Shown one piece after another: positions 6,474 through 35,902 of a stretch of DNA of 35,902 nucleotides. The DNA is from Clostridia bacterium. Lineage in GTDB: Bacteria > Bacillota > Clostridia > Oscillospirales > Acutalibacteraceae. A program made the position numbers and the translations under genes. Location: NCBI GenBank assembly GCA_017554405.1, contig JAFZIK010000038.1, positions 1 to 35,902 of the forward strand, in the 5' to 3' direction. The first letter of the stretch is position 1. The number at the start of each line of letters is the position of its first letter. Below the pieces are notes generated by a model, which was given only the letters and a program-made list of their open reading frames with translations, ran no database searches and had not been told where the DNA came from.

Positions 6474-7961
6474 ATGATTGGTGAAGCGATAAGAAAACTT
6501 GTTTGCTACGGACTTGAAAAAGGACTTTTTTCCGCGAGGGACGAGGTTTACGTTACAAACCTTTTGCTCGACGCGTTAAAGCTTGACGCTATAGAATGCA
6601 ATGAAACTTTCGGCGACGTTGACCTTAAAGCAACGCTTGACGAAATACTCGATTACGCGGTAGAAAGCGGCATTATCGAGGACGGTATCACGGCACGCGA
6701 TCTTTTTGATACAAAGATCATGGGTCTTATGATGCCGCGCCCCTCCGAGGTAACAAACGAGTTTTACCGGCTTTACGCCTCCTCCCCGCTTGAGGCGACC
6801 GATTATTATTATAAGCTTTCCTGCGACAGCAACTATATAAGACGGGACAGGATAGCCCGCGATCTTAAATGGAAAGCCGCCACCGTTTACGGCGAGCTTG
6901 ATATAACCGTTAATCTTTCAAAACCGGAAAAGGACCCGAAAGCGATAGCGGCGGCAAAAACCGCCCCGCAATCGGGATACCCGAAATGCCTTTTATGCCG
7001 CGAATGCGAGGGGTATGCCGGCAGGATAAACTTCCCCGCAAGGCAGAACCACCGCATAATACCCGTTACCATAAACGGGAGCGACTGGTTTTTCCAGTAT
7101 TCGCCCTACGTTTACTATAACGAGCATTGCATAGTTTTTAACGGCAAGCATACGCCCATGGCGATAAACCGCGATACCTTTATAAAGCTTTTTGATTTTG
7201 TTAAGCTGTTTCCGCATTACTTTGTTGGTTCAAACGCCGATCTGCCCATAGTTGGCGGCTCGATACTTTCGCACGACCATTTTCAGGGCGGGCATTACAC
7301 CTTCCCGATGGAGCGGGCTGCCACGGTAAAGGATATTTCCTTTACCGGTTTCACCGACGTTAAGGCAGGTATAGTAAACTGGCCGATGTCGGTCATAAGA
7401 CTTTCGGGCAAGGATACCGGAAGGATAGTAGAACTTGCCGATAAAATACTTAAGAGCTGGCGCGGCTATACCGATAAGGAAGCGTTTATCTTCGCCGAGA
7501 CCGACGGCGTTCCCCACAACACGATAACGCCGATAGCGAGAAAACGCGGCGAGGATTTTGAACTCGATTTAGTTCTTCGCAACAACATAACAACGCCCGA
7601 GCATCCGCTTGGCGTTTATCACCCCCACGCAAAGCTTCACCATATAAAAAAGGAAAACATAGGGCTTATAGAGGTTATGGGGTTGGCGGTTTTGCCCGCC
7701 AGACTTAAAGCCGAAATGGCGGCGCTCGAATCGGCGCTTATCGAAAACCGGGATATAGAAAACGACCCCGAGCTTTCAAAGCACGCCGACTGGGCTAAGG
7801 AGCTTAAAACAAAGTATCAATTCACACCCGAAAACACCGCGGATATAATCAAAAAGGAGATAGGCAACGTTTTTGCCGAGGTTTTATCCGATGCGGGCGT
7901 TTTCAAGAAAACAGACGCGGGCGAAGCGGCGTTTATGCGCTTTGTTTCACAGGTAAAGTAA
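6474..7961 (+). CDS. galT: UTP-hexose-1-phosphate uridylyltransferase, class 2
   Basis: GalT exchanges UMP between UDP-glucose and galactose-1-phosphate in the Leloir pathway. The 495-residue size, the N-terminus MIGEAIRKLVCYGLEKGL and the motif SILSHDHFQGGHYTFPMERA mark the Firmicutes class 2 family, in which the His-Asp-His segment replaces the HPH motif of class 1 enzymes. CLLCRECEGYAGRINFPARQ and GVYHPHAKLHHIKKENIGLI are further conserved blocks. galK and galE are not in the window. The downstream transporter gene starts 3 bases after the stop, so the two are probably cotranslated. Confidence 0.95.
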   Translation: MIGEAIRKLVCYGLEKGLFSARDEVYVTNLLLDALKLDAIECNETFGDVDLKATLDEILDYAVESGIIEDGITARDLFDTKIMGLMMPRPSEVTNEFYRLYASSPLEATDYYYKLSCDSNYIRRDRIARDLKWKAATVYGELDITVNLSKPEKDPKAIAAAKTAPQSGYPKCLLCRECEGYAGRINFPARQNHRIIPVTINGSDWFFQYSPYVYYNEHCIVFNGKHTPMAINRDTFIKLFDFVKLFPHYFVGSNADLPIVGGSILSHDHFQGGHYTFPMERAATVKDISFTGFTDVKAGIVNWPMSVIRLSGKDTGRIVELADKILKSWRGYTDKEAFIFAETDGVPHNTITPIARKRGEDFELDLVLRNNITTPEHPLGVYHPHAKLHHIKKENIGLIEVMGLAVLPARLKAEMAALESALIENRDIENDPELSKHADWAKELKTKYQFTPENTADIIKKEIGNVFAEVLSDAGVFKKTDAGEAAFMRFVSQVK

Positions 7962-7963
7962 TA

Positions 7964-8881
7964 ATGTTTTTAAACGTTTTATCGCAGGTAGCCATTTTGC
8001 TGATACTTATATCGCTCGGCTTTCTGCTTTCTAAGATGAAAATAGTAAACGAGGTCGGCGCCAAGTGTATGACCGACCTCGTGTTATACGCGGCAACGCC
8101 CTGCGTTATACTTATATCATTTATACGCCCGTTTGAAAAGAGCGCGGCGCAGGCGCTGCTTATAAGCTTTGCGGCGGCGGTAGCGGCGCACGTAGGGTTT
8201 ATTCTGCTTAGCCTGCTTATTATACGCGATAAAAACATATCGCGCGAGCGGGTTCTGCGCTTTGCCGCTATCTTCGGCAACTGCGGCTATATGGCTTTGC
8301 CGCTTGAACAGGCGCTTCTCGGAAACGAGGGGGTTTTTTACTGCTCAACGGTGGTTGCGGTTTTCAACATCTTCGTATGGAGCTTCGGCATATTCCTTAT
8401 GAGCGGCGATAAAAAAAGCATAAAGCCGAAAGCTTTGGCTTTAAACCCCAGTATTATTGCAATAATCGTAGGGATCATCGTTTTTGTTTTTTCCCTTCCT
8501 GTTCCCGATATTATTAAAAGCCCCTTGAACTTTTTGGCCGGGCTTAACACGCCGCTTCCGATGATAATAATAGGATATCACCTATCAAAAAGTGATATCC
8601 TAAAAGGTCTTCGTGATAAAGGCACGGTTATCTCCTGTGCAATGAAGCTTATACTCTTACCGCTTATCGCGCTCGGCGTTATGTATCTTTCGGGCATTCG
8701 CGGAACGATGCTTGTAGCTCTATCCGTAGCGTTCAGCGCGCCTGTTGCCGCGATGACGGCGATGTTCTCGGCAAAATATGAAAACGATACCTCGCTTGCG
8801 GCAACTATCGTGAGCACCAGCCACGTATTATGTATACTCACTATGCCACCTATAATATATTTAGCGCAGTTACTTGCCTGA
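7964..8881 (+). CDS. AEC family transporter (auxin efflux carrier-like)
   Basis: Integral membrane protein of 305 residues with about ten hydrophobic segments in two halves. It matches the AEC/PF03547 pattern: an N-terminal QVAILLILISLGFLLSK helix, then LVLYAATPCVILISF, and a C-terminal half with APVAAMTAMFSAKYENDTSLA followed by a final hydrophobic helix. Bacterial members transport small organic acids such as malate, but the substrate here cannot be told. It lies 3 bases behind galT. Its last 12 bases overlap the tail of the convergent EamA gene. Confidence 0.9.
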   Translation: MFLNVLSQVAILLILISLGFLLSKMKIVNEVGAKCMTDLVLYAATPCVILISFIRPFEKSAAQALLISFAAAVAAHVGFILLSLLIIRDKNISRERVLRFAAIFGNCGYMALPLEQALLGNEGVFYCSTVVAVFNIFVWSFGIFLMSGDKKSIKPKALALNPSIIAIIVGIIVFVFSLPVPDIIKSPLNFLAGLNTPLPMIIIGYHLSKSDILKGLRDKGTVISCAMKLILLPLIALGVMYLSGIRGTMLVALSVAFSAPVAAMTAMFSAKYENDTSLAATIVSTSHVLCILTMPPIIYLAQLLA

Positions 8882-9790
8882 TTTTTTAAACTCCGGAAGC
8901 TGCGCGGTTATTATCGCCGCAAAGACAAGAATACAGCCGATTATCTCATACCACCCGAGGGCGTGGGATAAAATGATCCAGCCGCCTATTGCGGCGAAAA
9001 CGCTTTCAAGGCTCATCGCTATTGAGGCGACCGAAGCCTCGGCGTATTTTTGGCCAACTATCTGCAGTGTGTAACCAACGCCGCCCGACATAACGCCTAA
9101 AAACAGTATACTTAAAGTCGCCGATTTTATATCGGCGATATTTATTTTATCAAGCTCGAACACGATCGCGCCGCAAAATGAGAAAAACGAGCAGAAGGAG
9201 AATTCGAGGAACGAAAGGCGAAGCCCGCCCACCGTATCGCAGTAGCGTTCGATACAGAGTATCTGAATGCTGAAGCCGAGCGCGCATGAAAGAAGCAGGA
9301 TATCGCTCGCGTAAAAGCCCGAAAGCCCTTCCCTTGCGCACAGCAAATAAACGCCGACTATCGCCACAAATACCGAAAGCCAAACGAGCGGATGAATTCT
9401 TTTGCCGAATATTACCGATATTATAGGCACAAGTATAACGTAGAGCGCGGTTAAAAATCCCGCCCTTGCCTCCGCGGGAACGTTCCCCGGATACGCGGCT
9501 ATGCCGAACTGCTGCAGATTTGCGGCAAGCGCAAGCATAAAGCCGCATACCGCGCCGGCAAAAAACGCTGTTTTACGAAGCTTTCTGTTTTTAGGAATGA
9601 TCGGCTCGCGGGTCTTTATTGAAAAGACTTTGAGCACAAGGCAAAGGCAAAGCGCGCTTATAAAAAAGCGCAGGAAATTAAGCGTCATCGGAGGGACCGC
9701 CTTTGCCGCCGACTGCGCCACAAAAGCAAATCCCCATATAAGGGCGCCGAAGGTGAGTATCAGCGTCCCCTTTAAATTGCTTTTATTCAT
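8870..9790 (-). CDS. EamA-family DMT transporter
   Basis: Drug/metabolite-transporter protein with about ten membrane helices and two EamA repeats. The first repeat shows GTLILTFGALIWGFAFVAQ and a Pro/Met-rich second helix; the second repeat shows ILCIERYCDTVGGLRLSFLE and a C-terminal SLESVFAAIGGWIILSHALG segment. This last is the signature preceding the final helices. Substrate unknown; the family exports amino acids, nucleobases or drugs. The ATG at 9790 comes one base after the stop of the SGNH gene and has no clear ribosome-binding site, so translation is probably coupled. A TTG at 9799 is an alternative start. Confidence 0.9.
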   Translation of the reverse strand: MNKSNLKGTLILTFGALIWGFAFVAQSAAKAVPPMTLNFLRFFISALCLCLVLKVFSIKTREPIIPKNRKLRKTAFFAGAVCGFMLALAANLQQFGIAAYPGNVPAEARAGFLTALYVILVPIISVIFGKRIHPLVWLSVFVAIVGVYLLCAREGLSGFYASDILLLSCALGFSIQILCIERYCDTVGGLRLSFLEFSFCSFFSFCGAIVFELDKINIADIKSATLSILFLGVMSGGVGYTLQIVGQKYAEASVASIAMSLESVFAAIGGWIILSHALGWYEIIGCILVFAAIITAQLPEFKKSGK

Positions 9791-9791
9791 A

Positions 9792-10433
9792 TCAGCCAAG
9801 CTGTGAAAACGCCTTTAACCACTCGCGGGCGATAAGCTCGTGCCCCATAGCCGAAGGATGAACGCCGTCTACAAGCCAGTAAGCGGTGCCGGTATCGGCT
9901 GACATTTCATCAAGCTTTTGCTGAAGCGGTATAAACGGCAGATTGTATTTTTCGGCTATCGCCTTTGCCTTTTGCGCACGCCTTTTTACCTCGGAGCTAA
10001 ACATTTCCCATTTATCGGGGATGGCTTCGGTATTATCGGTAGCGCTGCCCTTAAGACAGAACGGCTCCATTATCATTATCTTTATATTGGGCAGCTCGGC
10101 TTTTATTTCTTCTATGAGCATTGAATATATCTTCTCGAACTTATCCGCGCTAACGCCGTTTTGCCAATCTATCTCGTGCCATACGTCATTTACGCCGATA
10201 AGGATACTCATATAATCCGGGCGAAGATTTATTATATCCGCCTTGATGCGGGCGTAAACGTCAACAACACGGTTCCCGCTTATGGCGCGGTTTTGGAAAT
10301 CAAACTCGCCGGGATGATCGTATCCGAGTTGTGCTTTTAAAAGCAACGCGTATCCGTGACCGATGTAAGAAGGATTATCACGTCCCCAACCGCAATCCGT
10401 TATGGAATCGCCCTGAAAAAGTATTCTTTTCAT
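9792..10433 (-). CDS. SGNH/GDSL hydrolase
   Basis: Cytoplasmic esterase/lipase-type hydrolase of 213 residues, without a signal peptide. Block I GDSITD puts the nucleophile at Ser10; block II contains Asn-rich NRAISGNRV; block III is GVND; block V is DGVHPSAMGH with the Asp/His pair. This is the complete SGNH set. The substrate is unknown; acyl or acetyl groups on sugars are common targets. I start at ATG 10433, where the motif sits at the normal distance; the longer upstream frame overlaps the promoter. Likely operon with the EamA gene. Confidence 0.9.
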   Translation of the reverse strand: MKRILFQGDSITDCGWGRDNPSYIGHGYALLLKAQLGYDHPGEFDFQNRAISGNRVVDVYARIKADIINLRPDYMSILIGVNDVWHEIDWQNGVSADKFEKIYSMLIEEIKAELPNIKIMIMEPFCLKGSATDNTEAIPDKWEMFSSEVKRRAQKAKAIAEKYNLPFIPLQQKLDEMSADTGTAYWLVDGVHPSAMGHELIAREWLKAFSQLG

Positions 10434-10476
10434 AATTAAACCGACCTTTCTCTTTCTGCATTTAAGCATATATAAA

Positions 10477-10505
10477 AGTATAACACGCATCGCGCGTTAT
10501 TTCAA
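10477..10505 (-). promoter_or_regulatory. Promoter of the SGNH-EamA operon
   Basis: TTGAAA (10500-10505), 17-base spacer, TATACT (10477-10482) with an upstream TG on the minus strand. It diverges from the sufC promoter 14 bases away. Confidence 0.65.
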
Positions 10506-29658: not shown

Positions 29659-29928
29659 ATGAAACTAAAATACGAATTTACGGTAATGGATATGGGCGAT
29701 GAATTTGCCGCGGTCCCGGTGGGTGAAGACGCGGCGAAATTCCACGGTATGCTTAAGCTTAACAAGGCTTCGGCGGAGATTTTAGAACTTTTAAAAGAAG
29801 AAACCGAGCCCATGAAGATACACGAGTATCTTAAGAACAAATATCCCGATTCAACCGATGATGAGATCGGTCATACCCTTGTTGATTTTCTCAACAAGCT
29901 CTTGCGCGAAGGGCTGCTTACAGATTAG
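29659..29928 (+). CDS. PqqD-like protein (possible RiPP recognition element)
   Basis: Small 89-residue protein of the PqqD family. FHGMLKLNKASAEILELL and the C-terminal LLREGLL segment match the winged-helix PqqD fold used in many peptide-maturation systems to hold the leader of the precursor. Free-standing PqqD proteins accompany lasso peptide and radical-SAM systems, but none of those enzymes is seen here. The start is ATG 29659; a TTG further up falls in the promoter region. It opens a six-gene operon and its stop lies one base before the next ATG. Confidence 0.82.
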   Translation: MKLKYEFTVMDMGDEFAAVPVGEDAAKFHGMLKLNKASAEILELLKEETEPMKIHEYLKNKYPDSTDDEIGHTLVDFLNKLLREGLLTD

Positions 29929-29929
29929 T

Positions 29930-30409
29930 ATGGAAAACAAACAGAGTTTTGAAGAGGTCCTGCTCCGCGACGGGCGCCTTATATACACCAACGTTGGCGT
30001 GAGTATGCTTCCGCTTATTCACGAGGGACGGGATATAATAGTTATCGAGAAGCGCGATATATCAAAGCTTAAGCGTTACGATGTTGTGCTGTTCAAGCGT
30101 GAAAACGTAAAGGGCCGCGGCGAATACGTGCTTCACAGGATAATAAAAAAACTGCCGGGTAACGTTTTTTATATCGTTGGCGATAACTGCACCAAAGGCG
30201 AAAAGGTCCACGCCGATCAGATACTGGGCGTTCTGACCGCCGTTAAGCAGGGCGGCAAGGACGTTGACCTTAAAGGTTTTCGCTACCGCGCCTATGTTTA
30301 TTTATGGTGCGCGCCGTATCACCTCAGATTTCTTATACTTCATATCAAGCACTTTTTCAAATACGCCGCGGGGGCCATAGCTTATAAACTCAGAATAAAA
30401 AAGCAGTGA
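29930..30409 (+). CDS. S26-family signal peptidase, SipW-like, compact
   Basis: Serine peptidase of the signal peptidase fold, 159 residues. The nucleophile is Ser25 in VGVSMLPLI. The general base is His69 in YVLHRII, not Lys, as in the SipW/archaeal-eukaryotic branch, and GDN follows at 84-86. No N-terminal membrane anchor precedes the catalytic Ser, which is unusual; the hydrophobic, aromatic C-terminus (about 122-150) may attach it to the membrane. It is translationally coupled to the PqqD-like gene. In this setting it may remove the leader of an exported peptide rather than general signal peptides. Confidence 0.85.
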   Translation: MENKQSFEEVLLRDGRLIYTNVGVSMLPLIHEGRDIIVIEKRDISKLKRYDVVLFKRENVKGRGEYVLHRIIKKLPGNVFYIVGDNCTKGEKVHADQILGVLTAVKQGGKDVDLKGFRYRAYVYLWCAPYHLRFLILHIKHFFKYAAGAIAYKLRIKKQ

Positions 30410-30418
30410 TTGTAAAAA

Positions 30419-31147
30419 ATGGAATTTACTATAAAGATTGCGGACGTAAACATAGGAATAACAAGCGTTTTTGACGGGGTATCGAAGCTTTGCAAGGATT
30501 ATCTGACCGACGAGTGCCCCGATTTTTGCATAAGAACCGACCTTGAAGATATCGCCTTTGAACGCGAAAAGGCAAAGCGCGAAGCGGCTTTTGAGCACAG
30601 GCCGTATTTTGATTTTTCGGACGCCTACCTTGAAACTCTCGCCGCTTACCGCAAAATCGCGGTGGGCATACTCCCGTTTGACGCGTTTTTAATGCACGGC
30701 GCGGTGGTGGGCCGCGGCGGCGAGGCGTATTTGTTTACCGCGCCTTCGGGCGTTGGCAAAACTACCCATACGCGGTTCTGGCTCCAAAATTTCAAAGACG
30801 CGTTTATAGTTAACGGCGATAAACCGATACTGCGTTTTAAGGATGGTGCGGTTTACGCCTGCGGCACACCCTGGGCGGGCAAAGAGGGCGAAAACAAAAA
30901 CGTTATGCTGCCGCTTAAATCGGTTTGCATTCTTTCTCGCGGCAAAACAAACGAAATAGAGCGGGTGGATTTCGGCAGGATATATCCTCTGCTTATAGGG
31001 CAGGCCTACCGCCCCGCCACCGAAAAAGAGTTAAGCAAAACTATGAGTTTGATAAAAAAACTCGGCGAGAGCACGGCATTTTATCTGCTGAAATGCAATT
31101 TGGACCCAAACGCGGCAAAGGTTGCCTTTGAGGGGATGAACGGATGA
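30419..31147 (+). CDS. HPr-kinase-like P-loop protein
   Basis: Protein of 242 residues related to the C-terminal domain of HPr kinase/phosphorylase and PEP carboxykinase-like ATPases. The P-loop APSGVGKTTHTRFW (108-121) is followed by NGDKPIL (132-138) and GTPWAGKEG (149-157). It lacks the N-terminal domain of true HprK, so it is unlikely to phosphorylate HPr. Related proteins occur in lasso peptide clusters, where some phosphorylate the precursor's C-terminal serine. The substrate here is not known. It starts 9 bases after the peptidase gene. Confidence 0.82.
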   Translation: MEFTIKIADVNIGITSVFDGVSKLCKDYLTDECPDFCIRTDLEDIAFEREKAKREAAFEHRPYFDFSDAYLETLAAYRKIAVGILPFDAFLMHGAVVGRGGEAYLFTAPSGVGKTTHTRFWLQNFKDAFIVNGDKPILRFKDGAVYACGTPWAGKEGENKNVMLPLKSVCILSRGKTNEIERVDFGRIYPLLIGQAYRPATEKELSKTMSLIKKLGESTAFYLLKCNLDPNAAKVAFEGMNG

Positions 31148-32292
31148 TAACAAACTGTCAGGCGGCGCTTTTAGAGCTTTTAAAGGCTTCCCTTTTCGGT
31201 ATTAAGCCCGATTTTCCGGCAGATACCGATTGGGACGCAGTATATAATGAGGCAGAGGCGCAAACGGTAGTAGCGCTCGCGGCGCCGGCTGTGCCCGAAA
31301 ATTACGCGGCAAAATGGCAGGTGCCCGCGGCGCAGAGCACCGCGCAATATATGCGCAATATCTTTGAACAAACGAAACTTACAGAACTTTTCTGTTCAAA
31401 CGGTATCCCGCTTGTTATATTAAAGGGCGCGGCGGCGGCGGTCTATTATCCTAAGCCCCAGCTTCGCACAATGGGTGATGTTGATTTTTTGGTGCGTGAG
31501 GATGATTTTGAAACGGCGCGCGCACTGCTTCAAAAAAGCGGTTACATATATAAAGGGGATTACCTCGACGGCAGAGATTACACCTATACAAAAGGCGGGG
31601 TAATATTTGAACTCCACCACCGTTACAGCGATACCGAATACAATATCGAGCCGGCATTGATAAGAGGAATGGAAAACGCCGTTACCCGAACGCTTGGCGG
31701 GCAAAGCTTTAAAATGCTTCCCGATTTTGAAAACGGTCTTGTATTGCTTGATCATATACGCCACCACCTACACGGCGGGCTTGGAATCCGCCAGATGATC
31801 GACTGGGCAATGTTTGCAAACGCTATGCTTGACGACAAGAGCTATGCCGAGCACTTCCTGCCGCTTATAAACGGCGCCGGACTTGTTACCTTTGCCGAAA
31901 CCGTTACAAAAATGTGCAAAATTTATTTAGGTCTGCCTGATACCGTAACCTGGTGCGACGGCGCGGATGCGGCTACAGCCGGAATACTTATGGAAAAGGT
32001 GTTAAACAGCGGCAACTTCGGCAGAAAAACGCCTTATGAATATAAGCCGATGCTCGAGCTTTCCTCGGATATAAAAAAGCACGGCGTATTTAGGGTTTTG
32101 CAAAAAGCCGGTATGGCGAATTTCGGCATTTGCAGAAAATACCGCTTTTTAGGCGCGTTTGCCTGGCTTTTTCAGGCGTTCCGTTTTATCCCGCGCGGCA
32201 TAACCGCACTGTTTCGCGGAGAGAACTTCAAAAAAGATATAAAATCGGGCGGCGAGGAAGCCGACCTGTATATAAAACTCGGCTTGAAATAA
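31144..32292 (+). CDS. NTP_transf_5-family nucleotidyltransferase-like protein
   Basis: Protein of 382 residues with the minimal nucleotidyltransferase fold. VILKGAAAAVYYP is followed by LRTMGDVDFLV, where Asp112 and Asp114 form the catalytic pair. HHLHGGLGIRQMIDWAMF is another family block. Genes of this family accompany HPrK-like and ABC genes in lasso clusters such as the paeninodin cluster, where their role is not established. It overlaps the kinase-like gene by ATGA. Transfer of a nucleotide to a peptide or a small molecule is possible. Confidence 0.83.
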   Translation: MITNCQAALLELLKASLFGIKPDFPADTDWDAVYNEAEAQTVVALAAPAVPENYAAKWQVPAAQSTAQYMRNIFEQTKLTELFCSNGIPLVILKGAAAAVYYPKPQLRTMGDVDFLVREDDFETARALLQKSGYIYKGDYLDGRDYTYTKGGVIFELHHRYSDTEYNIEPALIRGMENAVTRTLGGQSFKMLPDFENGLVLLDHIRHHLHGGLGIRQMIDWAMFANAMLDDKSYAEHFLPLINGAGLVTFAETVTKMCKIYLGLPDTVTWCDGADAATAGILMEKVLNSGNFGRKTPYEYKPMLELSSDIKKHGVFRVLQKAGMANFGICRKYRFLGAFAWLFQAFRFIPRGITALFRGENFKKDIKSGGEEADLYIKLGLK

Positions 32293-32316
32293 GCCGGCAA
32301 ACTTCGGAGGTATACA

Positions 32317-34236
32317 TTGAAAAAGGGTAAATATACCGGGATCAACCGCTTGCTTAAAAGCGACGCTTTACAGGCTATCATAAACAAAATATACGACGGC
32401 ACCTTCAAAGAGTTTTTAGGCGACTGGAAATGGATCTTTTCATTTTCAAAAAAATATCGCGTAATAGTGATTTTCTATACCCTTGTGGGTATTTTCGGCT
32501 CAAGTATGGCGCTCGGTGCCGCATATTTGAGCAAGATACTGATAAACATCATCGTTGGGCAAAAGACCGATAAGCTATGGCTTTTGATCGGCGGCATGGT
32601 GGGTATGACGGTCTTTTCGCTTCTGCTTTCAAGTCTTTCAAGCCGCATATTCACGCGGATATCGATCTACGTTAACAACGATATACAGGGCGAAATATTC
32701 GATAAGATAATCGACGCGCGCTGGAAGGAGCTTTCCGCCTATAAAAGCGGCGACCTTTTAAACCGCTTCAATAATGACGTTGGCACTATAGCGGCAAACG
32801 CCATAGCCTGGATACCTAACCTTATAGTTAATATTTACACCTTTGCGCTGACCTTCTTTGTGCTTTTTAAAACCGACCCGATGATGGCTTGGATAGCGTT
32901 TTTATCGGCTCCCTTCCTGCTTGCGATGAGCCGCTACATAATGCGCAAAATGAAGGAATACCGAAAAAGAGTTTTAGAGCTTAATTCGCAGATGATGAGC
33001 TTTGAGGTTGAAACCTTTTATAACTTTGATATGATTAAATCCTTCGGCGTTTTCGGACACTATTCAAAGCGGCTTCGTATGTGGCAAAAGAAGTTTAAAG
33101 AGTTTAACCTCGATTACAACAAGTTTGAGATAAAATCAAAGATACTTGTAACGCTTGTTTCCACCCTTGTATCGCTTGTAGCGTTCGGCTACTGCCTGTA
33201 TAGGCTTTGGCACGGGCAGATCGGATACGGTGATATGACCTTTTTCCTGCAGCAGCGGTCAAGCCTTTCGACCCGCTTTAACAGCCTTGTTGGAACAATA
33301 CCCGGCATGCTTAATTCGGCGGTATCGGCGCATCGCATAAGGGAGCTTATCGACCTGCCGCGCGAAACGCACGACGAGGCGGCATACGAGAAACTTAAAG
33401 CGATAGCCGATGAAGGCATCGCAGTGGATCTTAACAACGTTACCTTTTCATACGTCAGCGATAAGCAGGTTTATAAAAACGCGAAATTCAGCGCAAAGCC
33501 GGGCGAAATAGCGGCGATCCTTGCCGAATCAGGCGGCGGGAAAACCACCTTCATGCGGTTGCTTCTCGGTATGCTTGACGCCGAGTCGGGCTCGGTAACG
33601 CTGACCGGAGCGGACGGCGAGGCGCTTCCGATAAACGCCGATCTGCGGCGGTTTTTCGCCTACGTGCCGCAGGGCAACACCATTCTTTCGGGCACGATAG
33701 CGGAGAATATGCGCATGATGCGGGAGGACGTTACCGACGAGGAGATAATATCCGCACTCAAAACGGTTTGCGCTTACGATTTTGTAAATGAGCTTAAAGA
33801 CGGAATAAACAGCACCTTGGGCGAGCGCGGCAGAGGCGTTTCGGAAGGTCAGGCACAGCGGCTTTCGATAGCCCGCGCCCTTATAAGAAACTCACCCATA
33901 CTGCTTCTTGACGAGGCGACCAGCGCGCTTGATATAGATACCGAAGAAAAGGTGCTCAAAAACATAATAAAGGCGCACCCGAACAAGGTCATCATTATTG
34001 CGACCCACCGCCCGAGCGCCTTAAAGCTCTGCAAGAGGATTTACCGCATTAACGATGGCGATATAAAGGAAGCCGACGCGGCGGCAGCAGAACAAATGGC
34101 TTGGCGGTATTCGGATATGCCGGCGGAAGGCAATCTGCCCGGCGGCAACGTAAAACTGCCGGATATGCCCCTTACACCTAAGATCGAAACCGATCTTCTC
34201 AAAAACGATAATAACGACGGTTGGTGGAATAATTGA
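32317..34236 (+). CDS. ABC exporter, fused membrane and ATPase domains
   Basis: Half-transporter of 639 residues. Six membrane helices lie within about 50-320 and the ATPase domain within about 370-580. There is no C39 peptidase domain, so leader cleavage must come from another enzyme such as the S26 peptidase upstream. Two motifs deviate: Walker A reads AESGGGKTT (Ala in place of the first Gly), and the signature is VSEGQAQR instead of LSGGQ. Walker B (LLLDEATSALD) and the switch His (ATHR) are intact. The start is TTG with GGAGG six bases ahead. A C-terminal tail of about 50 residues, Pro/Asn/Asp-rich and ending in WWNN, is unusual. Confidence 0.92.
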   Translation: MKKGKYTGINRLLKSDALQAIINKIYDGTFKEFLGDWKWIFSFSKKYRVIVIFYTLVGIFGSSMALGAAYLSKILINIIVGQKTDKLWLLIGGMVGMTVFSLLLSSLSSRIFTRISIYVNNDIQGEIFDKIIDARWKELSAYKSGDLLNRFNNDVGTIAANAIAWIPNLIVNIYTFALTFFVLFKTDPMMAWIAFLSAPFLLAMSRYIMRKMKEYRKRVLELNSQMMSFEVETFYNFDMIKSFGVFGHYSKRLRMWQKKFKEFNLDYNKFEIKSKILVTLVSTLVSLVAFGYCLYRLWHGQIGYGDMTFFLQQRSSLSTRFNSLVGTIPGMLNSAVSAHRIRELIDLPRETHDEAAYEKLKAIADEGIAVDLNNVTFSYVSDKQVYKNAKFSAKPGEIAAILAESGGGKTTFMRLLLGMLDAESGSVTLTGADGEALPINADLRRFFAYVPQGNTILSGTIAENMRMMREDVTDEEIISALKTVCAYDFVNELKDGINSTLGERGRGVSEGQAQRLSIARALIRNSPILLLDEATSALDIDTEEKVLKNIIKAHPNKVIIIATHRPSALKLCKRIYRINDGDIKEADAAAAEQMAWRYSDMPAEGNLPGGNVKLPDMPLTPKIETDLLKNDNNDGWWNN

Positions 34237-35300
34237 ACAAAACAGATTATAACGAAATATATGCCAGAAGAAGGCGCGTAGGCAGCGCGGATACGCTTAA
34301 GCTCCTGCTTATGCCGTTTGTGATGTTTGTGTTTTTCGGGTTCCCCACCGCGGCAGGCGGTTACATTCAAACCCTTTCAAACTTTGCCGCCCCCGCCTTT
34401 TTTATCCTTTCGGGGTTCTTTATCCTTACCCCGGACGACGCCGTGCGCAGAAAAAGGCTTAAAAAAGCCATAAAGCGCAATTTTATTACATTTACGGCAA
34501 TGTTTATAGTTTATTTTTTGATTAACGCGGCGTATTTATCTTACCTCGGAGTAAACTGGGCGCCCGAAATACTGAGAAAACGCATACTGTTTAATTTTCT
34601 GGTATTTAACGTATGGCCTCTTTCCATAGGCGGCGGTATTTGGTTTATGCAAAGTCTTCTTTTCGCGGTAATAATCCTGCTTGCGGCGGATATATGTAAG
34701 CTCCTTAAAAAGCCATATGTTTACATACCCGTGTTTTTGATTTTAGTATGCGTTACGCTTTTCTCCGGCGAGTTTTCAAGATTGGCGGGTTTCCCTCATT
34801 TTGGTTATAATTATATACCCGCCGGCACGGTAACAAGAGCGCTGCCGTATATGCTTATAGGTATGTTTATCCGCTATAAAGCAAACACGATACTTAATAT
34901 TAATCGTTGGCTGTTCCCGGTGTTTTTCGCGGTCGGTTTTCTGCTTGCCGCGGCGGAGCTTAACCTGCTTGCGCATTTTAAGCTTCTTATATACACCGGG
35001 CATACGGTTGGCTTTGCGATCATGGCGATTTCGGCTTGCTGTTTTGCGCTTTCACTAACCGATACGCGCGATTCTTTCCTTACCTCTCACGGCAGAAGCT
35101 TCGCAAAAAGGATATACGTTTGCTGCCAGCCGGTATACTTTATTATGATGTTTACAGTAAGTTACGTTCTCCCTGAATATTACTTTGTTATACGTGCGTT
35201 CAGCCCCTTTATCGTGCTTACGATCTGCCTTATTATCGCATACGTAACAGGCGTTGTAAAATTTGCGCTTAGTGAAATGAAAAAACTTGATAACCAATAG
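34233..35300 (+). CDS. Membrane acyltransferase (acyltransferase 3-like)
   Basis: Integral membrane protein of 355 residues with about ten hydrophobic segments. NFAAPAFFILSGFFIL matches the most recognizable segment of the acyltransferase 3 family, as does the general pattern of short loops with basic residues. The N-terminal His-Arg active-site residues of the family are not evident, so the protein may be divergent or have another role. The start is a TTG overlapping the ABC gene's stop (TTGA), which couples the two. O-acylation of an exported product is a possible role. Confidence 0.7.
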   Translation: MNKTDYNEIYARRRRVGSADTLKLLLMPFVMFVFFGFPTAAGGYIQTLSNFAAPAFFILSGFFILTPDDAVRRKRLKKAIKRNFITFTAMFIVYFLINAAYLSYLGVNWAPEILRKRILFNFLVFNVWPLSIGGGIWFMQSLLFAVIILLAADICKLLKKPYVYIPVFLILVCVTLFSGEFSRLAGFPHFGYNYIPAGTVTRALPYMLIGMFIRYKANTILNINRWLFPVFFAVGFLLAAAELNLLAHFKLLIYTGHTVGFAIMAISACCFALSLTDTRDSFLTSHGRSFAKRIYVCCQPVYFIMMFTVSYVLPEYYFVIRAFSPFIVLTICLIIAYVTGVVKFALSEMKKLDNQ

Positions 35301-35311
35301 AGCATTTTTTC

Positions 35312-35340
35312 TTGACAACTCGCCCCACGAGTGTTAAAAT
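35312..35340 (+). promoter_or_regulatory. Strong promoter of the Tyr-rich protein
   Basis: TTGACA (35312-35317), 17-base spacer, TAAAAT (35335-35340) with extended TG. The spacer contains a short perfect inverted repeat, ACTCG-CCCCA-CGAGT (35318-35332), that could bind a regulator. Confidence 0.75.
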
Positions 35341-35373
35341 TACTTTGTAAATTTATTTTTGGAGGAGATTCCG

Positions 35374-35730
35374 ATGAACAAGTTAGGCAACCTCGAGCTT
35401 AAAGTAGTTCGTTTCGCCAGCCAAGACGTAATAGCAACAAGCTTTTACGTAATTCCCTACAGTCAGTATCATGACGATGTATACGGCTCATTTGATTATG
35501 CTGACTATGTTTTGATGGAGGGTGAGCAGCTCTATTACAGCGATGCGGAAAAAGGTTGGGCCATCGCATCGTATCCTTATTATGGTTTTGATGCGGATGA
35601 ATATCAAGATCTGAAAAACAACCCGGGGTCCTTCGGTTATAATCGTTATAGCATTTATGATGCGTATCAAGGTTCGGACGGTTATTATTACACTAAGGGC
35701 GCAAGCTACGGAGAGCTTAGCGGGCAATAA
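35374..35730 (+). CDS. Tyrosine-rich small protein, candidate exported peptide precursor
   Basis: Protein of 118 residues with 20 tyrosines, all after residue 24, often in YY or YYY runs with Gly, Ser and Asp. The first 23 residues have a different composition (Leu, Val, Lys) and end DVIATS, which resembles leader ends that I recall from small Clostridia peptides encoded near such export genes. Ala21-Thr22-Ser23 would suit a signal-peptidase cut. No hydrophobic signal core or transmembrane helix is present, and no Cys, so disulfide or thioether bridges are excluded. The start is ATG 35374 behind GGAGGAG. It has its own strong promoter and follows the exporter and acyltransferase genes. No function can be assigned. 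Confidence 0.7.
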   Translation: MNKLGNLELKVVRFASQDVIATSFYVIPYSQYHDDVYGSFDYADYVLMEGEQLYYSDAEKGWAIASYPYYGFDADEYQDLKNNPGSFGYNRYSIYDAYQGSDGYYYTKGASYGELSGQ

Positions 35731-35761: not shown

Positions 35762-35902
35762 TGAACTGCCCCAATTTGTACGGACAGCACAAAAAAGCCC
35801 CCTATGACACGATATTAAGTTTTTAAGCAACGAACTGGCACCGATATTCCATCGGTGTCAGTTTTGTTTTGAGTTGGATGCGCTGATAGTTGTAGAAGTG
35901 GA
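35762..35902 (-). mobile_element. IS3-family insertion sequence, one end
   Basis: TGAACTGCCCC at 35762 looks like the terminal inverted repeat of IS150-type elements and is followed inward by the transposase 3' end on the minus strand. The other end lies beyond the window. The insertion is 31 bases after the stop of the Tyr-rich gene, so downstream genes of the cluster may have been separated or lost. Confidence 0.75.
35823..35902 (-). CDS. IS3-family transposase (OrfB) C-terminal part, partial
   Basis: The reverse strand translates to a C-terminus reading HFYNYQRIQLKTKLTPMEYR followed by six residues and a stop at 35823. The Tyr-Asn..Arg-Ile-Gln-Leu and Thr-Pro-Met-Glu-Tyr-Arg blocks are the standard end of the rve integrase domain in IS3/IS150 transposases, after the last catalytic Glu. 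The gene runs out of the window, so integrity of the DDE triad cannot be judged. Confidence 0.88.
   Translation of the reverse strand, partial: HFYNYQRIQLKTKLTPMEYRCQFVA

What the first reader, a model, noticed from the sequence alone, without database searches (positions are those of the whole stretch)
29659..35730. Peptide maturation/export cluster without known RiPP cyclase
Seen: six nearly contiguous plus-strand genes (PqqD-like, SipW-type peptidase, HPrK-like, NTP_transf_5, ABC exporter lacking C39, acyltransferase) followed by a Tyr-rich protein with leader-like N-terminus. Known: PqqD, HPrK-like and nucleotidyltransferase genes occur together in lasso clusters such as paeninodin, there with asparagine-synthetase-like and transglutaminase-like enzymes. 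These are absent here, and a signal peptidase takes the protease's place. Inference: an undescribed or little-described family in which the peptide is bound by PqqD, modified by phosphate or nucleotide (and perhaps acyl) groups, trimmed by the S26 enzyme and exported.
Basis: partly seen in the sequence, partly recalled or inferred. Interest (0 to 1): 0.85.

Follow-up and report, generated by a model that had tools for sequence, protein, structure and literature searches.

The report
Variant linear phosphopeptide (LPP-like) gene cluster
A gut bacterium carries a gene set that very probably tags, cuts and exports a small ribosomally made protein; the general system was first described in 2026, but this branch differs in its leader code, in its larger, probably folded product and in a steady partner gene for a membrane protein that resembles an acyltransferase but lacks its catalytic residue.

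Summary
The seven genes are there as described. The set PqqD(RRE)-SipW-like peptidase-HprK-like kinase-NTP_transf_5-ABC exporter without a lasso cyclase is no longer undescribed: it is the gene set of the Linear Polyphosphorylated Peptides (LPP; PMC13381572, May 2026). The window is a divergent branch of that kind. Its Tyr-rich 118-aa protein is very likely the precursor: long precursors with the same leader occur in 24 of 36 loci of this RRE subfamily (several contigs are cut), with a leader ending like D-V-I-A-T-S, a variable core and a C-terminal Gln (25 of 27). Differences from published LPPs: no YxxP or Px9FxT in the leader; the RRE Asp that binds that Tyr is lost too (covariation p=2.5e-4, not corrected for relatedness); the core is predicted to fold (pLDDT 84, shallow alignment) without a PDB match; an AT3-family membrane protein accompanies it (30 of 36 loci) but none of 38 rows has the AT3 catalytic His, so acylation is not supported. 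Lasso B2 was not found in the genome. By analogy, invariant Ser23 takes the phosphate and the peptidase cuts just before A21-T-S. In related genomes, short precursors with such leaders often sit just behind genes for large secreted proteins.

The parts
29659..29928 (+). PqqD-family RRE (LppB-like, 89 aa); Asn35 equals LppB N33, but Thr73 stands where LppB has D70
   Evidence: PF05402 34 bits; register checked against PDB 9x8z LppB; alignments
29930..30409 (+). SipW/SEC11-type S26 leader peptidase (LppS-like, 159 aa), Ser25-His69-Asp85
   Evidence: TIGR02228 33 bits, below cut-off; SEC11C best PDB hit of the profile, E 0.002; Ser in 66 (one gap), His in 67, Asp in 67 of 67 rows
30419..31147 (+). 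HprK-like kinase (LppK-like, 242 aa)
   Evidence: P-loop and D-K-P motif invariant in 4 rows; homologues in 91 of 295 genomes of the order
31144..32292 (+). NTP_transf_5 nucleotidyltransferase (LppN-like, 382 aa) with GDVD motif
   Evidence: PF14907 143 bits; motif
32317..34236 (+). MsbA-type ABC exporter without C39 peptidase (LppD-like, 639 aa, TTG start)
   Evidence: PF00664 and PF00005; NCBIfam MsbA/LssB matches below their cut-offs
34233..35300 (+). AT3-family membrane protein lacking the His of the R-x10-H motif (355 aa, TTG start)
   Evidence: PF01757 43 bits; His in 0 of 38 rows, one of them a gap; model pLDDT 86, nearest PDB chains HGSNAT, E 0.14, prob 0.94
35312..35340 (+). predicted sigma-70 promoter of the precursor gene, TTGACA-17-TAAAAT
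   Evidence: 11 of 12 consensus positions; similar promoter before 21 of 27 precursors, this one included, controls
35374..35433 (+). leader of the precursor, residues 1-20 (cleavage after Ile20 inferred from LPP homology, not shown)
   Evidence: leader alignments; low-confidence region of the model
35434..35730 (+). core of the precursor, residues 21-118 (A21-T22-S23...Q118) and stop; Ser23 proposed phosphate acceptor; predicted small folded domain
   Evidence: Ser23 invariant in 27 rows; C-terminal Gln 25 of 27; AlphaFold2 mean pLDDT 84

Best explanation
A divergent, LPP-like RiPP operon. Proposed order of events: (1) the precursor gene, from its own promoter, makes a 118-aa protein; (2) the RRE (PqqD) clamps about residues 4-14 of the leader through an aliphatic [LIM]xxP-type code (LxxL in the window) instead of YxxP; (3) the HprK-like kinase puts one or more phosphates on Ser23, with NTP_transf_5 perhaps capping them with a sugar or nucleotide; (4) the RRE hands the leader to the Ser-His-Asp S26 peptidase, which cuts just before A21-T22-S23 so that the phosphoserine is core residue 3; (5) the MsbA-type exporter releases the core, which probably folds as a small domain rather than staying a flexible linear peptide; (6) the AT3-like protein, without its catalytic His, acts as a dedicated non-acylating partner (immunity, docking or release). 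Shown here: gene set, conservation, co-occurrence, peptidase catalytic residues, leader/RRE covariation, no lasso B2 found. Inferred from the published LPP system: steps 2-4. Inferred only: folding, step 6, biological role.
For: Same gene set as the LPP family, whose kinase, RRE-dependent leader peptidase and linear product are shown by experiment (PMC13381572). A profile of 15 RREs, three of them of this branch, matches LppB in PDB 9x8z at E 9.4e-7. Leader profile found at E<=0.01 in 51 of 295 genomes, 46 of which carry the kinase (91 of 295 overall), p 1e-22; without the seed genomes 41 of 46, p 2e-20. Leader residue versus RRE residue at the D70 position: Tyr/Asp 7 loci, Tyr/other 0, other/Asp 1, other/other 10, p 2.5e-4; in the 36-locus subfamily that residue is not Asp in 35, Asn33 is kept in 36, and no leader in the 25 loci that show one has Tyr there. 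Ser at D+5 in 52 of 55 leaders and 27 of 27 long precursors. Within 8 kb of the RRE: S26 31, HprK 29, ABC 27, AT3 30, leader-bearing precursor 25 (24 long) of 36 loci, several contigs being cut. Precursor promoter with perfect -35: 14 of 26 besides the window, against 0 of 75 for S26, HprK and NTP5, 0 of 36 for PqqD, 4 of 31 for ABC, 2 of 32 for AT3 and 0.7% of random stretches. S26 triad conserved. Core model pLDDT 84.
Against: No biochemistry on this branch. The published leader motif (YxxPxVLxHQxIxFETxxS, Px9Fx[T/A]) and RRE D70 are not met. The RRE profile matches the lasso RREs TbiB1 (2.1e-12), TfuB1 (5.5e-8) and PbaB1 (1.1e-7) better than LppB, so the RRE alone does not place it with LPPs. 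NTP_transf_5 is in only 15 of 36 loci, so its step cannot be essential to the subfamily. The covariation counts related loci: the aliphatic/non-Asp members belong to one RRE subfamily, and L094 (Phe with Asp) breaks the rule. Five genomes have leaders at E<=0.01 but no kinase match, and 45 of 91 kinase genomes have no leader at that cut. Of 40 kinase places fetched, 11 have neither PqqD nor S26 in the stretch. The five structure models range from pLDDT 84 to 58 on a 27-row alignment. HprK-like identity rests on motifs; no solved kinase matched convincingly.
Confidence: 0.8

Rival explanations
1. A lasso-peptide cluster of the paeninodin type whose B2 protease and cyclase lie beyond the contig end.
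For: RRE, HprK-like kinase, NTP_transf_5 and exporter are shared with paeninodin clusters; LPP and lasso clusters co-occur in Bacilli; the RRE profile matches lasso RREs in the PDB best; one relative's genome (L213) has B2 and Asn_synthase hits together on one contig.
Against: No PF13471 match in the window's genome, over cut-off in 1 of 31 genomes, there on a 26,381-base contig while the cluster's contig has 8,900 bases; RRE has Asn where paeninodin RREs have Gly; leader has no WxxP; core of 98 aa.
Confidence: 0.04
2. An exported small protein that is acylated: the AT3 protein is a real acyltransferase with altered catalytic residues, and the RRE/kinase part only regulates processing.
For: AT3 over Pfam cut-off, AT3/TmAT-like model with HGSNAT as nearest solved structure, weakly, AT3 next to the precursor, two AT3-precursor pairs in L035.
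Against: His of the R-x10-H motif in 0 of 38 rows, a residue called absolutely conserved in AT3 and whose Ala mutant of OafA keeps 0.33% of signal.
Confidence: 0.1
3. The Tyr-rich protein is not the substrate but an accessory (for example an immunity or surface protein) that merely shares an N-terminal motif.
For: Core predicted to fold, unlike a typical peptide; no cleavage shown.
Against: Similar leaders head short ORFs next to the same machinery, which have little but a leader and a short tail; leader/RRE covariation; dedicated promoter; duplication with variable cores.
Confidence: 0.07

Closest known systems
Linear Polyphosphorylated Peptides (LPP), lpp cluster of Paenibacillus alginolyticus DSM5050 (PMC13381572, 2026)
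   Same: RRE, SipW-like Ser-His-Asp leader peptidase, HprK-like kinase, NTP transferase, MsbA-like exporter; precursor with conserved N-terminus and variable C-terminus; no cyclase; RRE Asn33; Ser a few residues after the leader; capsule genes nearby in some loci
   Different: Leader code [LIM]xxP (LxxL in the window) with F-x3-D-V-I-A-T-S instead of YxxP with Px9FxT; RRE lacks D70; 87-141 aa precursor with C-terminal Gln and predicted folded core; AT3-like partner. 'Acyltransferase' and 'Clostridi' do not occur in that paper's main text; its supplement was not seen
Paeninodin / pseudomycoidin lasso peptides (seen as passages of PMC8498205 and PMC7533575)
   Same: RRE, HprK-like kinase acting on Ser, nucleotidyltransferase adding hexose in pseudomycoidin, exporter
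   Different: B2 cysteine protease and macrolactam cyclase, WxxP leader, short core with C-terminal Ser; none found here
AT3 / TmAT membrane acyltransferases (OafB, HGSNAT)
   Same: Family match and probable fold
   Different: Catalytic His in none of 38 rows
HprK-like kinases named in NCBIfam (HprK_rel_A; SynChlorMet ScmC)
   Same: Weak kinase similarity
   Different: Matches far below the curated cut-offs

Membership tests
LPP | SpI + discrete RRE + HprK-like + NTP transferase + MsbA-like exporter in one cluster | tested here: met
   Window genes; subfamily counts, (NTP transferase only 15 of 36)
LPP | Leader peptidase with Ser-His-Asp triad | tested here: met
   SEC11C match
LPP | Precursor of 35-200 aa, conserved N-terminus, variable C-terminus, inside the cluster | tested here: met
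   27-row alignment; loci
LPP | Leader motif YxxPxVLxHQxIxFETxxS / Px9Fx[T/A] | tested here: not met
   Window leader MNKLGNLELKVVRFASQDVIATS; in the 27 rows the invariant Phe stands 7 after the Pro position, and no subfamily leader shown has the Tyr (motif)
LPP | RRE Asn33 | tested here: met
   36 of 36, register
LPP | RRE Asp70 | tested here: not met
   Thr73 in the window; not Asp in 35 of 36
LPP | RRE falls in the LPP clade of the RRE tree | not tested
   No LPP sequence set at hand; the profile scores lasso RREs of the PDB above LppB
LPP | Phosphate acceptor Ser near the leader end | tested here: met
   Ser present in 27 of 27; phosphorylation itself not testable
LPP | Polyphosphorylated linear product | not testable with these tools
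   Needs mass spectrometry
Lasso peptide (paeninodin type) | B2 protease and macrolactam cyclase | tested here: not met
   PF13471: no match at E<=0.01 in the genome; the four PF00733 hits of G000 are on C8, C33, C16 and C12, none on the window's contig C32; genome 97.5% complete
Lasso peptide (paeninodin type) | WxxP leader and Gly at the RRE N33 position | tested here: not met
   rules
AT3 acyltransferase | R-x10-H in the first helix | tested here: not met
   Arg/Lys kept in 36 of 38 rows, His in 0 of 38, nor within 3 columns of that place; rule

The most novel reading that the evidence does not exclude
The leader/RRE/HprK/S26 module has been freed from small peptides: in this branch it tags and exports a folded ~10 kDa protein of unknown fold with phospho(-glycosyl)-Ser3 at its N-terminus and a recognised C-terminal Gln, together with a pseudo-acyltransferase as its dedicated membrane partner; in related Clostridia the same module serves, in trans, many scattered short precursors, often encoded just behind a large secreted surface protein, so that LPP-type products would be fittings of the cell surface rather than antibiotics.
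Probability: 0.3. Interest if true: 0.78.

Novelty: new variant of a known kind. Interest (0 to 1): 0.57.

Why it matters
LPPs were defined from about 200 peptidase homologues, mostly of Bacillota, collected in 2019, and their role is unknown. This branch shows the module in many genomes of one order of Clostridia, gives a natural experiment in RRE/leader code switching (two codes in one genome), supplies a precursor that looks like a folded protein, and, through the secreted-protein cassettes, gives a concrete hint of where such products act.

Tried and rejected
Lasso cluster with genes off the contig: very unlikely. Cleavage after ATS by the signal-peptidase -3/-1 rule, my first idea: dropped after the LPP paper showed cleavage before x-x-Ser with Ser phosphorylated; the exact bond here stays inferred. 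Acylation: weakened by the missing His. Viral contigs with the precursor profile: 112 stretches matched a pattern, none confirmed. Single-sequence PDB search of the RRE gave, among the 60 of 185 hits shown, reverse transcriptases only; the profile search worked. Kinase searches of the PDB gave nothing convincing. Fold search of the core: no PDB or viral match at E<=0.001; fold search of AT3: none at E<=0.001 either, HGSNAT first at E 0.14. Pfam on 10 upstream secreted proteins: LRR_5 (two), Big_2, List_Bact_rpt, CHAP and a marginal BBE match; six of ten had none. The 36-locus clusters show no further gene shared by more than 5 loci.

Corrections and dropped rows: alignment A4 had one leader cut by a wrong coordinate and was replaced by A5. 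mis-registered L189 and missed L097 and one L089 leader; one search repeats it with a fixed register. In one search one L035 leader was read as 'D' by a regex slip (true residue Ile, still not Tyr); L174, L177 and L193 were left out because the register could not be set; of these only L174 has an RRE in its stretch (residue His). One search counts only upstream genes within 60 nt by a gene filter of its own: 19 of 50 short precursors have none by that rule. The secreted-like rule there is a home-made hydrophobicity rule, not a signal-peptide predictor. Six of the 17 hits of the shared C-terminal region were its seeds. The 27 long precursors exclude L226 (38 aa) and the 33-aa ORF of L225.

Controls not done: no phylogenetic correction of the leader/kinase or leader/RRE tests; supplement of PMC13381572 not readable here.
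Full report
Observation. The window is a whole contig (G000:C32) of a 1.67-Mb genome, 97.5% complete. The kinase label rests on motifs, the S26 label on a below-cut-off NCBIfam match plus a full triad. NTP_transf_5 relatives occur in 38 of 60 relatives searched, but close ones (62-63%) only in G012 and G020.

Conservation. G012 (L035) keeps the whole set and has two AT3-precursor pairs; G020 (L036) is cut by the contig end behind AT3; G165 (L088), another family, has the full set. The HprK-like profile hits 91 of 295 genomes of the order. Of 40 such places fetched, 24 have both PqqD and S26 in the stretch, 5 one of them, 11 neither.

Precursor. An eight-leader profile hits 51 of the same 295 genomes at E<=0.01, where about 3 chance hits are expected; 46 of the 51 have the kinase, 5 do not (G101, G109, G145, G280, G290). 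Without the five seed genomes: 41 of 46. Of 55 leader ORFs in the fetched loci, 50 are under 80 aa, such as MKQLSYETPELEIIKFEAEDIITTSPTIEGDDNELPVLPLYE; some genomes hold 8 or 9 hits at E<=1.

What is known. PMC13381572 (abstract, Results, Discussion, the Bioinformatics section of Methods, and passages read; supplement not) names this gene set Linear Polyphosphorylated Peptides. There LppK phosphorylates core Ser3 several times, LppS cuts the leader only with LppB, and LppB D70 and N33 hold YxxP. Its sequence set was collected in February 2019. In the listings I recognised no other paper that describes the cyclase-free set.

Difference 1, the code. In LppB register, confirmed by a profile alignment to PDB 9x8z, the window RRE has Thr73 at D70 and Asn35 at N33. 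The same profile scores lasso RREs (TbiB1 2.1e-12, TfuB1, PbaB1) above LppB (9.4e-7), so this is a check of register, not of clade. At 18 loci with both parts, Tyr leaders pair with Asp (7), non-Tyr with non-Asp (10), one exception (L094), none the other way; Fisher 2.5e-4, relatedness not corrected. The Phe leaders of L095, L157, L186 and L192 (four families by the listing) meet Ala or Ser. A scan of genome contigs (84,980 species) gave 36 loci of the window's RRE subfamily and its fringe (37-78% identity), mostly Clostridia MAGs, many with ruminant gut sites in their titles, plus NK3B98 and, at 47%, Ruminococcus albus KH2T6; four of the 36 are L035, L036, L088 and L171 again. The D70 residue is not Asp in 35 of 36, Asn33 in 36 of 36. 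The window's own genome holds a second RRE-S26 pair with a Phe leader and Ser at that place (L003), so two codes in one cell.

Difference 2, the product. The 27 long precursors share Ser23 (27 of 27) and a C-terminal Gln (25 of 27); all but one have a net negative charge and none has more than one Cys. They match nothing in Pfam or NCBIfam. AlphaFold2 on the 27-row alignment gives pLDDT 84 with an ordered five-strand core and a low-confidence leader; the other four models are 80, 78, 66 and 58. No solved structure matches at E<=0.001. A promoter pattern precedes 21 of 27 precursors. With a perfect -35 it precedes 14 of 26 besides the window; controls: S26, HprK and NTP5 0 of 75, PqqD 0 of 36, ABC 4 of 31, AT3 2 of 32, random stretches 0.7% (loose pattern: PqqD 4, ABC 6, AT3 3, random 3.5%).

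Difference 3, AT3. Present in 30 of 36 loci. The R-x10-H His that PMC9833829 calls absolutely conserved (passages) and whose Ala mutant is inactive in OafA (PMC7448272, passages) is in none of 38 rows, duplicates and one gap included, while the Arg/Lys stays in 36. The column was found by counting from that Arg/Lys; no His lies within three columns. The model resembles HGSNAT weakly (E 0.14, prob 0.94). So a fold kept and a catalytic residue lost: a partner rather than an enzyme, by inference.

Lasso. PF13471 was not found in the window's genome and is over cut-off in 1 of 31 genomes (L213's), with Asn_synthase hits on the same 26-kb contig, which is not the cluster's contig. Besides the set, the clustering of neighbours within 8.5 kb found a Wzz-type gene in 5, Polysacc_synt_2 in 3 and UDP-glucose dehydrogenase in 3 of 36 loci, and three further genes each shared by L229, L233 and L234 only (family checks of representatives), which recalls the capsule loci around LPPs in Bacilli.

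Verdict. Works like an LPP system and may share its origin, but two published hallmarks (YxxP/Px9FxT leader, D70) were tested and not met, so it is filed as a divergent variant, not as a plain member.

Noticed in passing
L164, L173, L156, L162, L185, L188, L154, L176, L097, L167 and others: Of 50 short (<80 aa) leader-bearing precursors, 31 start within 60 nt behind a same-strand gene; of the 24 complete such genes 22 look secreted by a simple hydrophobicity rule (median 818 aa) against 147 of 812 other genes (p 3e-14). A two-gene cassette: secreted protein plus LPP-type precursor.
   Followed up: partly
17 ORFs, e.g. L097 10495-11487, L164 2592-6173: A shared C-terminal region of up to ~240 aa: nine of the 17 ORFs are such upstream genes, L095, L157 and L192 also lie directly before a leader, L089 about 1 kb before one. 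Six of the 17 were the seeds, and the stretches were chosen around leaders or kinases. No Pfam match over that region in the five members scanned.
   Followed up: partly
L003 (G000:C12:56500-76400) 7847-10490 and G000:C54:44472-45149: Second RRE-S26 pair of the same genome beside a 35-aa precursor (MFKKADLEIYEIDVEDIIMASSGDYPGEEEDPFAS) and a 494-aa secreted protein; its kinase may be the HprK-like gene on C54, which has no RRE or S26 in the stretch fetched (L085). RRE, precursor and secreted gene have the same layout in G079 (L154).
   Followed up: partly
genomes G116, G290, G314: Eight or nine scattered leader hits per genome at E<=1; those listed for G116 and G314 are on other contigs than the kinase, which suggests one machinery serving many precursors in trans. 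G290 shows no kinase at 81% completeness.
   Followed up: no
L204, L206, L220, L224, L231, L216, L232, L227, L090, L118: Capsule genes (Wzz/kinase type, Polysacc_synt_2, UDP-glucose dehydrogenase) close to the clusters, as reported for LPPs in Bacilli.
   Followed up: partly
G716 contig C116 (L236; genome of L213): Lasso B2 and Asn_synthase hits within about 3 kb: a genome with probably both a lasso cluster and this LPP-like variant.
   Followed up: partly
window 35832-35864: Strong 14-pair hairpin with T-rich tail close to the contig end, in what may be the edge of a mobile element.
   Followed up: no
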